NCBI GenBank assembly: GCA_020186115.1
Contig: WSYJ01000119.1
Location: forward strand, 19,444-83,443
Reading direction: 5' to 3'
DNA length: 64,000 nt
DNA from: Histomonas meleagridis
Lineage: Eukaryota > Parabasalia > Tritrichomonadida > Dientamoebidae
The stretch's first letter is position 1. Each line of letters starts with the position of its first letter. Positions 3,608-64,000 of the stretch are shown here, piece after piece. Under the pieces are notes generated by a model. That model saw only the letters and a list, made by a program, of their open reading frames with translations, did not search any database and was not told the DNA's origin. The position numbers and the translations under genes were made by a program.

Positions 3608-3977
3608 TTAGTTCTTCAAAATATATATCAAATTTACTGTTAAGATTTCTATTTGTGGAATATTCCATTTGCAAATGTAAGAAATGATAGCAAAAAAGTG
3701 ACAAAATTTCAAACAAAATTACTTCTTCATTAAATAGATGTTTACTCTAATAAAATCCATCACTCGAAATTTTCGAGTCGAAAACATTTATTTTTTGAGT
3801 TATAATTACTAGAAATAAATAGTTTCAAGGATATTTTTTAAACAAAGAAAGAAGAGGTTAATCCATTTTCACTTTTTGTACGATGATAACGGTTTTTGCC
3901 CTTGGCATCGTGCTATCGTTTAAATGATTTTTTTTGCAAAATTTCAATGCTTATTTGTTCAAATCCTTAATTTGTAA
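3608..3977. other. Intergenic region with 17-nt hairpin at 3762-3778
   Basis: No gene is seen. An odd perfect palindrome (ACTCGAAA, one base, TTTCGAGT) lies at 3762-3778. The last 100 bases before the Rab start contain CGATGATAACGG (about 3881) and TATCGTTT (about 3914), whose complement AAACGATA resembles the Trichomonas M3 promoter motif. These are weak matches. Confidence 0.3.
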
Positions 3978-58930: not shown

Positions 58931-59905
58931 ATTTATTTTTTAATTTTAAAATTTATAATAATATTTTGATTTTTCCTATATTATTTTGGATTTTTTTTAT
59001 ATTATTTAATACTTCACTTATTCTTGCATCCCAATATGGATATTATGAAATAACTCAATTACTTCTTCAACAAAGAAAAATTGATATTAATTCTAAAAAT
59101 GATATATTTTTTATTTTTTTGTTATTATCAACAATTAAATGTTTTTTATTAATCTTTAAAATTTATTTAATCCTTTTCAAACAGCATTAATAAAAGCATG
59201 TTTATATGGGTACACTAATATTGTAAAACTCCTTCTTGAACAAAAAGGAATTGATTTAAATGCAAAAGATATTTAATCTTTGTTTTCTATGATTTTTTCT
59301 CTATTTTGATGCGAATCTTTTAAACTTCATATTTAAATTCATTATTTTTTTCATCACTTATGTATGCATCACAAGGAGGTTATATTGATATAGTAAAATT
59401 ACTTCTTGATCAAAAAGGAATTGATTTAAATTCTGGTAATTTAATTTTGTTTTGTTCGAAGTTATTTTTGAAAATTTGTTGGAATTTTTTGAAACAGCAC
59501 TTATTCTTGCAAGTTGGGATGGGCATAAGGAAATAGTGAAATTACTTATTGAACAAGAAGGAACAGATATCAATGTTCAAAGTATTAAATTATTTTTTTT
59601 TGATATTTTTTTCCAATATTTTTGTTTTATTATCTGTTTTTGGAATTTATTTGTGAAATTTACAACAGCACTAATAAATGCATGCCAAAATAATCATCGA
59701 GTAATAGTTAGAATGCTTCTTGATCAAAAAAGTATTAACATTAATTTAAAAAATTTTGGTCTTTTATTTTTGATGTTTTTTGTATCCATTTAATATTCGC
59801 GATTTTATACATGGAGTTTTATATCAAAATTGCAAACAGCATTTGATATTGCATCTTCAAAAGGATACCAAGAAATTAGAAGGATGATTTCATTAAAATC
59901 ATAAA
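58931..59905 (+). repeat. Ankyrin cassette array, locus D (6 units)
   Basis: Ankyrin units lie at about 59011-59100, 59181-59273, 59355-59437, 59491-59583, 59665-59757 and 59839-59902. The spacers, counted from the conserved Asp/Asn codon to the next Thr/Ser codon, are 80, 80, 80, 53, 81 and 81 nt. They are dissimilar in sequence to those of loci A-C. The last unit ends in a real stop (ISLKS, TAA at 59902). Units keep ALILAS, EIVKLLL and GIDIN-type residues although no continuous frame links them. Confidence 0.75.
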
Positions 59906-61700: not shown

Positions 61701-61970
61701 TCTTCACAATTTAAAGTTTTAATTGTAAACACAATCTTTGACTGAAGATGGTAAAAAGATCCATCAAACCAATATAACAATTATCTGAATTCAATAGAGG
61801 GAATAATATTCCACATTTTTTTAAGAAAATAGGGATAATAATGAAACAAGCTTGTAATGACAATACGGTTTCAATCAAATTTAAGATCGTAAGCCATAAT
61901 TGAATTTAAAAATTTGACAATTCGAGGATAAAAGTTTACTAATTTTTTTCGCAAATAATTTTTCATTTTT

Positions 61971-62261
61971 ATGGAAAATCAAACTGGTGAAAAAGACATC
62001 AGTCAAAACATTCGTGACGAGTTGGAAACATTATTATTAATTAAGCAAACAATTTTTAAAAATCTCCACGACAAATATTTTCTTCATCATAAGCATCCCG
62101 AAGATATTAATAAATTATTGGAACATACAAAATTTGGAGATAAAATTAAAGAAAATTATGATGAACTTTCAAAAAATGATTGGGAACTTCATAAGAAGTT
62201 AATTGAAGAAGGAGTTAATCCATCAAAAATTGCGATGATAATTCGAAATGATGAAATATAA
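61971..62261 (+). pseudogene. Truncated DUF3447 gene, cut at viral-like DNA
   Basis: ATG 61971 (MENQTGEKDISQNIRDELET) opens a 96-codon frame. It keeps the DUF3447 segment NYDELSKNDWELHKKLIEEG and PSKIAMIIRNDEI but lacks about 110 residues of the usual N-terminal region. Homology to the paralogues ends at GATGAAATA (about 62258), where the others continue with (D/E)KLQ. TAA follows at once and the sequence changes character. The rest of the gene is absent from the window. Confidence 0.75.
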
Positions 62262-62280
62262 TCTTGACTGAGGTACCACT

Positions 62281-62335
62281 AACGTCCTCCGCAAGATAGG
62301 GACCGAGAAAAAAATTTTTATTTTTAAACGTCCTC
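62281..62335. repeat. Iteron-like direct repeat in viral-like segment
   Basis: AACGTCCTC occurs at 62281-62289 and 62327-62335, 46 bp apart. Direct repeats in the noncoding region of CRESS genomes are often Rep-binding iterons; that role is inferred. Confidence 0.35.
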
Positions 62336-62413
62336 AGATAACGGTCGTAATTGAATTAAGAAAAAGCGCCTAACCCCCACCCCTATTGCACTTTATCTAC
62401 TTCTCTGGTCTCC

Positions 62414-62461
62414 GCCCTTATATAAAAAAGGGCTCCGCGAGGTCGGGCTACGGCCAGCTCG
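62414..62461. promoter_or_regulatory. TATA-like element and GC hairpin in viral-like segment
   Basis: TTATATAA (62418-62425) sits between GCCC (62414-62417) and GGGC (62429-62432). A GC-rich hairpin follows, CGAG at 62438-62441 pairing with CTCG at 62458-62461. No standard CRESS nonanucleotide is present in the loop. Confidence 0.35.
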
Positions 62462-62686
62462 TGATAAATGCACTCATTCGCCATTAGGGCTTCTTTTGGG
62501 GGAGGGGGTACCTTGGTTTAAAGAAAAAGAAAAAAAGAAAAAAGTTCTCAATTGCCCATAGAGTGAACAAACTTTGTTATTATCACTTATGTGCTGAGTC
62601 GAAAAGAAAAAAATAAAATTAATCAGAAAAACCGATAGATAAAAAGAAAATATCTTAAAATCAATTGAATGGTTTACATTTTACAA

Positions 62687-63319
62687 TTAAAAATTAAATG
62701 AATAATTAGAATTAGGAACAATTAAAACACTGGGTGCAGATACTTCAAAATTGGTTTCACGAATATAAAATACAAGAGAATTATTAGATGTAAAAAAACC
62801 AACTGTACGATTATTAACTGATGGATAAGTAGTACCAAAATCATATAAATAATAATAATAAGTACCTGAACTAGAAATAGATGATTGATGTAAATAATTG
62901 ACATATATCTCAGTATATTCAGAATTGGGTTGATTAGGTTCAATTTGAATAATAACATAATAATGTGTTGGATCTATTGTCTGATTTAAATTAGTGATAT
63001 AAGTAAATTGTGATAATGAAATAAAACCAGGAATATCTGAAATAGATATAAAAGATATTGGTATAATAACCTTAATAGTAGATCCAATTTCATAAGCAAT
63101 TCTTTTAGTACTAGAACCACCAGGATAATTAACAATGGTATCTTGAATAGTATAATTAGGAATCCTACCATTATTCTTAAGAACTTCATAAGCACGATCT
63201 AGATCATATTTAGTAAGAGGTGGATTAATAGGAGGTACCAACTTACGTTGTATAACACGTCCCTTATTGCGTGAATAATATGATTCACTAATAGGTCCTA
63301 TACGATGTGGATCAAACAT
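62687..63319 (-). CDS. Unknown ORF of CRESS-like segment, 210 aa
   Basis: ATG 63319 (MFDPHRIGPISESYYSRNKG). It follows the capsid frame in the same orientation with a 26-bp gap. The first 70 residues are basic and Pro-rich (RVIQRKLVPPINPPL); the rest is beta-rich with many Tyr, Ser, Asn and Ile (HYYVIIQIEPNQPN, SGTYYYYLYDFGTTYP) and no Cys. The beta-rich composition and place beside the capsid suggest a second structural protein, but no family is recognised. CRESS genomes normally have only Rep and capsid, so an extra long ORF is notable. AT-rich codon use matches the host. Confidence 0.6.
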   Translation of the reverse strand: MFDPHRIGPISESYYSRNKGRVIQRKLVPPINPPLTKYDLDRAYEVLKNNGRIPNYTIQDTIVNYPGGSSTKRIAYEIGSTIKVIIPISFISISDIPGFISLSQFTYITNLNQTIDPTHYYVIIQIEPNQPNSEYTEIYVNYLHQSSISSSGTYYYYLYDFGTTYPSVNNRTVGFFTSNNSLVFYIRETNFEVSAPSVLIVPNSNYSFNF

Positions 63320-63345
63320 AAAAATAACAGTGGGAAAATTTTTTA

Positions 63346-63857
63346 TTAATAAGTAATAGCATAATTTAATTGAACCCCTAAGAACTTATCGGTGATTTCA
63401 GTACCAGGAATGGATACTTTTAAACATAAAACAATACAATCACCTGAATTCAAATTACGTGCTAACCTAGTACGAAATACTTGAGTCTGTTGAGCATTAG
63501 GGGTAAGGTACCCTGACATTATAACATTTTGATTAGGTTCATATAATGAAACTGGTGCAGCAGGGGTACCAAGTGACATTGTTTGAGGAACCGTACCATC
63601 TGGAACATATACTAGAGCCCATAATAATGGAATATCAACATCTGTAATCATTTTTAAAGTAAAATTCTTTACTTTACGCATACCTTGGGTAGCGACGGCA
63701 GTGATAAGAGTGGTATTTACTTGATCACCTACGGCACCGTCACCGGAGCCTGTATTAAATGTAATGTTTCCGAACAATTATAAGTCTCATTAGAATACTT
63801 TACAGTCTTTAATGGACGTCCACGTGAATAACTACGTCTACGTAATCTACGAGGCAT
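63346..63857 (-). pseudogene. CRESS-type capsid protein, frame broken near N-terminus
   Basis: The frame from ATG 63857 begins with an Arg-rich arm (PRRLRRRSYSRGRP), the DNA-binding N-terminus typical of CRESS capsids, and ends after 42 codons at 63729. A second phase, open from 63777 to 63346, carries the jelly-roll part: ALVYVPDGT, SLYEPNQNVIMSG, then RLARNLNSGDCIVL and a final LNYAITY. These motifs are those of capsids from protist-associated CRESS viruses. The two phases overlap at 63731-63777, so a one-base shift, recoding or a sequence error separates arm and shell. No stop occurs inside the shell region. The total length, about 170 codons, is normal for the group. Confidence 0.78.
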
Positions 63858-63942
63858 AACAATAAAAAATTTAATGTTGTGGGAGATTTATTAATTGAGG
63901 GTGAATTAAATAGGAAGGACACACACACACACAGCGCTATGT

Positions 63943-63966
63943 GAGCTTCGTGCTACGCACTCGCTC
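63943..63966. other. Hairpin near right edge, possible viral origin region
   Basis: GAGC (63943-63946) pairs with GCTC (63963-63966) and, inside it, GTGC with GCAC around a TAC loop. It lies after an (AC)n tract (63919-63932) in the region upstream of the capsid, where CRESS origins usually sit. No TAGTATTAC-type nonanucleotide is seen. Confidence 0.3.
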
Positions 63967-64000
63967 CCACTCGCGCTACATAAACTAAAGGATGAACGGC

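What the first reader, a model, noticed from the sequence alone, without database searches (positions are those of the whole stretch)
62258..64000. Undescribed CRESS-like virus segment fused into a trichomonad-type DUF3447 gene
Sequence: DUF3447 homology stops at about 62258, inside a conserved motif, and viral-like DNA begins. The shell frame carries ALVYVPDGT, SLYEPNQNVIMSG and RLARNLNSGD, and an Arg-rich arm precedes it. Knowledge: this motif set belongs to capsids of small circular Rep-encoding ssDNA viruses linked with Entamoeba and Giardia. I know of no described CRESS virus of parabasalids. Inference: either an endogenous viral element or a viral genome joined to host DNA during assembly.
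Basis: partly seen in the sequence, partly recalled or inferred. Interest (0 to 1): 0.92.

Follow-up and report, generated by a model that had tools for sequence, protein, structure and literature searches.

The report
Endogenous CRESS virus in trichomonad genome
A piece of a small circular single-stranded DNA virus sits in this protist genome, broken off exactly at the virus's predicted replication nick site, and related pieces lie elsewhere in the genome with exchanged replication genes.

Summary
The finding is real. Window 62255-63919 is an endogenous fragment of a CRESS DNA virus, joined to a truncated DUF3447/ankyrin-type gene at 62255-62258. At 63919 it meets the end of a repeated transposon; the contig stops at 64000. 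Matches to its capsid gene, partner gene p210, Rep or origin lie at 40 places (some weak) on 29 contigs of the same 43.3 Mb genome, so an assembly chimera is not the general explanation. Relatives supply what the window lacks: Rep (HUH plus SF3 helicase), p119, and an origin stem-loop; the inferred circle is about 3.37 kb. New: viral DNA stops exactly where Rep should nick (TATATT|AC), with TATT shared between virus and the virus-free host copy; one further independent event (C104/C96) stops at the same base. Most Rep frames are 34-55% identical to each other, while C2 and C48 share Cap and p210 at 97-98%: replication modules were swapped. Endogenous CRESS viruses of gut protists are known, and I recall, but could not read, a report placing Kirkoviridae in parabasalids. 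So this is a rich new member of a known kind. Nick-site integration is the best inference, not proven.

The parts
61971..62258 (+). 5' part of a host DUF3447/ankyrin-family gene, cut off at the viral junction
   Evidence: 98-99% identical blocks in a virus-free copy at the other end of the contig, L037; DUF3447 in relatives
62255..62258 (.). junction: 4 bases (TATT on the minus strand) shared by virus and empty host site; viral side ends at the predicted Rep nick T|AC
   Evidence: match stops at query base 42; stops at base 149 = nick
62255..62319 (-). 5' arm and loop of the replication-origin stem-loop, cut at the nick; 3' arm missing
   Evidence: 98.6% identical to L038 over 148 bases up to the nick; stem-loops in relatives
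62687..63319 (-). p210, 210-residue conserved viral protein of unknown role, open frame
   Evidence: (33 matches, the window's own included)
63346..63777 (-). capsid (Cap) shell frame
   Evidence: (21 matches, the window's own included)
63775..63857 (-). Arg-rich N-terminal arm of Cap, in another frame (frameshift in this copy)
   Evidence: arm and shell form one 169-170-residue frame at other loci
63858..63919 (-). last codons of p119, cut by the transposon end
63919..64000 (+). terminal inverted repeat of a multicopy DNA transposon, running to the contig end

Best explanation
The fragment comes from an ambisense CRESS virus of about 3.37 kb (Rep on one strand; p119, Cap and p210 on the other) that infected this parabasalid lineage repeatedly. 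Shown: DNA of this virus group lies at 40 places, Reps of several lineages are combined with closely related structural genes, and in two independent events the viral DNA ends at the predicted origin nick. Inferred: Rep nicks the origin after TATATT, and the free 3' end is joined to host DNA at a TATT, either by Rep itself or by host microhomology-mediated repair. In the window this truncated a DUF3447 gene. The fragment was also cut by a transposon end at 63919 and its Cap frame is broken, so this copy is a relic with no expected function.
For: Homologs: Cap 21 matches, p210 33, Rep helicase 38, origin 24, merged into 40 places on 29 contigs. Rep: PF02407 and PF00910 above cut-off at L013, L015, L038 and L041; 9 PDB sequences matched, best E 1e-22, all named as some form of Rep or replicase. 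Origin: of 27 loci scanned by pattern, 15 matched, 13 of them with a stem of 11-18 pairs, 2 with only 4 pairs; five copies chosen for their stem fold at z -3.3 to -7.0. Nick: 23 of 24 origin matches cover the Cap side; 3 of these (C64, C104, C96) stop at the nick base. C104 and C96 are 96% duplicates, so two events. Virus-free copies of both sites were seen. Cap: Foldseek to a 'Circovirus sp.' capsid fragment, 32% identity, E 7.8e-6. Selection: Cap dN/dS 0.03-0.29 over 10 pairs.
Against: Only two independent junctions sit at the nick; 20 of 24 origin matches run past it. Other viral ends lie elsewhere: homology to L010 stops at 3883 and 2208 in L014 and at 4006 in L019, and in C19, C83 and C66 it begins inside the origin area at query bases 77, 58 and 63. 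At C104 the virus-free paralogs differ by several bases around the site, so the exact host join is ambiguous. 12 of 27 loci gave no origin by the pattern, among them C2, found by the looser scan. The Cap model is poor (pLDDT 48.6) and no PDB chain matched it at E <= 0.001 by fold or at E <= 5 by sequence. No relative was confirmed in 7 viral-contig scans and 1 genome-contig scan. Nothing shows expression.
Confidence: 0.8

Rival explanations
1. Assembly or library chimera: DNA of a free virus in the culture was joined to host DNA.
For: The junction is 1.75 kb from a contig end, and no reads could be inspected. A linear replication intermediate would also end at the nick.
Against: 40 places on 29 contigs, several deep inside contigs of 0.24-0.98 Mb between long non-viral frames. 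C104 and C96 carry the same nick junction but have diverged to 96% over 1.3 kb that includes the host flank on one side, so it was inherited. The window piece has a broken Cap and meets a transposon on its other side.
Confidence: 0.04
2. Integration of linear or circular viral DNA by host end joining; the nick-site ends reflect only the natural end of nicked genomes plus TATT microhomology, with no active part for Rep in joining.
For: Four-base microhomology at the window junction; ends elsewhere at other positions.
Against: Does not by itself predict TATT at the host side in both events, but two cases, one of them ambiguous, are few.
Confidence: 0.45
3. The structural genes are domesticated host genes spread by transposons rather than viral relics.
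For: Many copies; strong constraint on Cap; 7 of 40 places lie within 5 kb of Maverick-type genes.
Against: Rep, the origin, a repeat unit of 3.37 kb and a concatemer-like array go with them; many matches have stops inside or are partial. Constraint is explained by selection in the virus before integration.
Confidence: 0.04

Closest known systems
Naryaviridae and Nenyaviridae endogenous elements in Entamoeba (Kinsella 2020, PMC7493932: abstract and parts 2-3 of the main text read, other passages by search)
   Same: Whole CRESS genomes in a gut protist genome; one Cap group averaging 180 residues (their CCA2) against 169-170 here; Rep and Cap modules swapped between lineages
   Different: Their genomes have sense frames, here ambisense; relation of Rep and Cap could not be tested
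Vilyaviridae elements in Giardia (same paper)
   Same: Ambisense or antisense frames; a tandemly repeated element resolved in a long-read assembly
   Different: Free viruses average 59% GC; the window fragment is 32.6%, but the paper says endogenous copies have lower GC than free ones, so this is no test
Kirkoviridae and parabasalid endogenous elements (Kinsella 2022; recalled, not held)
   Same: Parabasalid host; possibly the same lineage
   Different: Not compared; no sequence available
'Circovirus sp.' capsid fragment A0A513PYE1 and Rat stool-associated circular ssDNA virus protein A0A0S2LUJ0
   Same: The only two Foldseek BFVD hits of Cap at E <= 0.001, 32% and 30% identity
   Different: Lineages and hosts unknown to me; the model is of low confidence

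Membership tests
CRESS DNA viruses (Cressdnaviricota) | HUH endonuclease Rep | tested here: met
   PF02407 above cut-off at L013, L015, L038, L041 and, in a fragment, L020. Not in the window, which holds no Rep
CRESS DNA viruses (Cressdnaviricota) | SF3 helicase in the same Rep protein | tested here: met
   PF00910 above cut-off in the same four full-length proteins; Walker A GPPGTGKS in L013, L015, L038, L042, variant forms in others aligned
CRESS DNA viruses (Cressdnaviricota) | Origin stem-loop with nonanucleotide-like nick site | tested here: met
   13 of 27 loci by pattern with 11 or more pairs, C2 by the scan, folds; nonanucleotide rule recalled
CRESS DNA viruses (Cressdnaviricota) | Single jelly-roll capsid protein | tested here: inconclusive
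   model with seven strands and one helix, pLDDT 48.6; two viral Foldseek hits at E <= 0.001, one of them named a capsid fragment of 'Circovirus sp.'; no PDB hit at E <= 0.001
CRESS DNA viruses (Cressdnaviricota) | Small circular genome | tested here: inconclusive
   inferred from an about 1.03 kb terminal repeat with a 3371-base period in C48; a free circle was not seen
Naryaviridae / Nenyaviridae | Sense arrangement of frames | tested here: not met
   Rep opposite to Cap at L010, L013 and L015; criterion from PMC7493932
Naryaviridae / Nenyaviridae / Vilyaviridae | Rep falls in the family's clade | not testable with these tools
   no reference Reps; homology search off
Kirkoviridae | Rep falls in the Kirkoviridae clade | not testable with these tools
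   no reference sequence; the paper is not held

The most novel reading that the evidence does not exclude
Rep itself inserts the virus: it nicks the origin after TATATT and transfers the 3' end to host TATT sites, and in this host co-infecting lineages freely trade Rep genes around one shared capsid block. The C48 array would then stem from recombined circles: a 3.37 kb viral unit alternates with a 3.36 kb unit made of viral sequence plus a piece of a BspA-like host gene, as if a genome-sized virus-host hybrid circle had replicated before integrating.
Probability: 0.12. Interest if true: 0.82.

Novelty: new member of a known kind. Interest (0 to 1): 0.58.

Why it matters
This genome gives a fossil record of one CRESS virus group inside a likely parabasalid host, with Rep exchange visible between copies. 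It also offers a base-exact clue to how such viruses enter genomes, a step that Kinsella 2020 calls likely Rep-mediated (passage of PMC7493932). A second assembly of the species or of a relative could test it at once. That parabasalids have few known DNA viruses is recalled, not searched.

Tried and rejected
Phage records, distant blastn of the fragment: no match. Pfam on Cap, p210 and p119: nothing. PDB by sequence for Cap: nothing. Viral-contig scans with Cap, Rep, p210 and p119: no confirmed relative in 7 of 7 answered scans; genome contigs with Cap: none. p210 structure: pLDDT 36, not searched further. Maverick as the element ending at 63919: not supported, because a 4.6 kb copy with both ends (in L055) has long inverted repeats and no ORF over 110 residues, and none of 11 PolB matches lies on the contigs of the facing pairs that I compared (C1, C8, C27, C74, C88); the 21-22 kb pairs were not read. 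Maverick nesting of CRESS pieces: 7 of 40 places within 5 kb of Maverick-type genes (named so because integrase and PolB lie together) against 1.5% of the genome covered. This is partly circular, because C104 supplied one of the probes and C96 is its duplicate; and both kinds may simply accumulate in the same regions.

Rows dropped: a p210 row from L028 with wrong coordinates was left out of alignment A4 and read correctly later. The 40 places include weak matches, the weakest at E 7e-4.

Full report
What is in the window. On the minus strand lie a 143-residue frame with the capsid motifs (63346-63777), the Arg-rich arm in another frame (from 63857), and a 210-residue open frame (62687-63319). 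The last 82 bases (63919-64000) are not viral: 39 other places among 40 scored matches carry them at 95-100%, some in facing pairs, and L055 shows they are the ends of an inverted-repeat transposon. The window is C64:19444-83443 of a 43,276,120-base, 121-contig assembly, and 64000 is the contig end, so nothing can be read beyond it. Size and the window's 28.5% GC fit Histomonas meleagridis (43.1-43.4 Mb, 28.7-28.8% GC; passages of PMC8529796). The contig numbers differ (187 and 281 there), so the species is likely but not proven.

Is it a real insertion? Cap has 21 matches in the genome, p210 33, a Rep helicase fragment 38 and the origin 24. Merged at 8 kb these are 40 places on 29 contigs, weak matches included. 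Several lie inside contigs of 0.24 to 0.98 Mb between long non-viral frames. In the genome paper's main text the word start 'viral' does not occur and 'virus' occurs twice (I saw one of the two, unrelated).

What the virus looks like. At C48 a viral unit repeats with a period of 3371 bases and carries a terminal repeat of about 1.03 kb (L010 1335-2361 and 4706-5731), as expected when a concatemer of a circle integrates. Order: Rep on the minus strand; p119, Cap (170 residues) and p210 on the plus strand (p119 is named from a 119-residue frame at C21, and the C48 copies differ at its end). Rep has the HUH family PF02407 and the helicase family PF00910 above cut-off in four proteins. In C48 itself Rep is spread over several frames. 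Between p210 and the 3' end of Rep lies a stem-loop. A free scan found it in five of 13 stretches, C48, C2, C30, C71 and C116; a sixth hit, at C53, was a different short repeat. A pattern scan matched 15 of 27 loci, 13 with 11-18 paired bases and two (C79, C19) with four. The loop holds GGTACC except at C2, and the foot of the 3' arm reads TTATTAC or TATATTAC in most, with CATATTAC at C2 and CATGTTAC at C111. Five copies chosen for their stem fold better than all or all but one of 200 shuffles. Stem sequences differ among C48, C2, C30, C71/C116, C111 and C83 while staying complementary. Origin is therefore a well supported reading; the exact nick (T|AC) is recalled knowledge of CRESS viruses.

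The junction. Read on the minus strand, the window follows the C30 origin to GATTATATT, then goes on with host TCATC; C30 goes on with ACCGAG. The virus-free copy of the host gene at the other end of C64 reads TTCTATTTCATC. So the viral side ends exactly at the nick, with TATT common to both. Of 24 origin matches, 23 cover the Cap side; three of these stop at this same base, C64, C104 and C96, and 20 run past it. C104 and C96 are 96% identical over 1.3 kb that includes the host flank, so they are one event. Related copies of that flank without the virus exist (L059-L062) but differ by a few bases at the site. A strict pattern found 14 origin halves in the genome and none for the reversed control; and the same three are cut at the nick. 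Other ends are not at the nick. This is good but small evidence that nicked genomes are what integrates; whether Rep does the joining is open.

Module exchange. C2 and C48 share Cap at 97% and p210 at 98% of residues (dS 0.11 and 0.03), yet the C48 Rep fragment matches C2 at only 44%. C2, C111 and C48 carry Rep with Cap; C30, C71 and C53 carry Rep with p119. Across seven Rep frames, pairs are 34-55% identical except C30-C21b (77%) and C71-C116 (95%). Compared as open frames, five Caps pair at 77-98%, five p210 at 70-98%, five p119 at 79-95%; broken or partial matches elsewhere go down to 66% for Cap and 42% for p210. C48 and C74 share Cap at 98% but p210 at 71%, so exchange also happened inside the structural block. 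Cap shows dN/dS of 0.03-0.29 in 10 pairs, p210 a weaker 0.19-0.56, the mark of selection in a replicating virus. Kinsella 2020 used such exchange as evidence of a shared host (PMC7493932).

The C48 array. Three host-virus units of about 6.7 kb run to the contig end. Successive copies of the shared block are spaced 3371, 3355, 3367, 3357 and 3366 bases. From 968284 to the contig end at 974130 the sequence is viral apart from small gaps, about 1.7 genome lengths. The non-viral half of each unit is a piece of a gene that looks BspA-like by eye (no family search was run on it); it continues into unbroken host sequence left of 952507. The near-equality of the two unit lengths may be chance after simple tandem duplication, or may mark a genome-sized virus-host hybrid circle. 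I noticed it after the fact and give it little weight.

Capsid. No sequence library matched it. The model is weak (mean pLDDT 48.6), but the only two viral Foldseek hits at E <= 0.001 are a 'Circovirus sp.' capsid fragment (32% identity, E 7.8e-6) and a rat stool circular ssDNA virus protein (30%, E 4.3e-4). I take this as support for a CRESS capsid, not as proof of a jelly roll. The role of p210 and p119 is unknown; a second structural protein and a regulatory protein are guesses.

What is known. Endogenous CRESS genomes in Entamoeba and Giardia are published, with one Cap group averaging 180 residues, module swaps, and a tandemly repeated element (PMC7493932). A 2022 paper linking Kirkoviridae to parabasalids is recalled only. 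In the held library the listings showed no paper on CRESS elements in Histomonas (3 of 3 listed, 20 of 73 listed) or on kirkoviruses with parabasalids (3 of 3 listed, none found). That library lacks most subscription papers and the 2022 paper itself, so this does not show that nothing is in print.

Verdict. A genuine endogenous CRESS fragment, now a relic. The kind is known; the richness of this genome, the Rep exchange and the nick-exact junctions make it worth following.

Noticed in passing
C64:341-1126 (L037) against window 61788-62261: The two ends of contig C64 carry 98-99% identical blocks of the same DUF3447-family gene in opposite orientation; the left copy has about 300 bases between two blocks that adjoin in the window.
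   Followed up: partly
window 63919-64000; L055: Long inverted-repeat DNA transposon with internal repeats of about 0.2 kb in its ends, many copies, several near contig ends; no family assigned.
   Followed up: partly
L015, L019, L044/L045, C21:397-404k, C21:563k, C106: CRESS pieces lie next to Maverick-type genes more often than genome coverage predicts (7 of 40 within 5 kb; partly circular).
   Followed up: partly
L040:330-1790: A mariner/Tc-like transposon seems to split the origin region of the C74:734k copy.
   Followed up: no
C48:952507-974130: Viral and virus-host units of almost equal length (about 3.37 and 3.36 kb) alternate in the array.
   Followed up: partly
window 59452-59793: Ankyrin-repeat gene piece upstream (Pfam Ank E 4.6e-13).
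   Followed up: no
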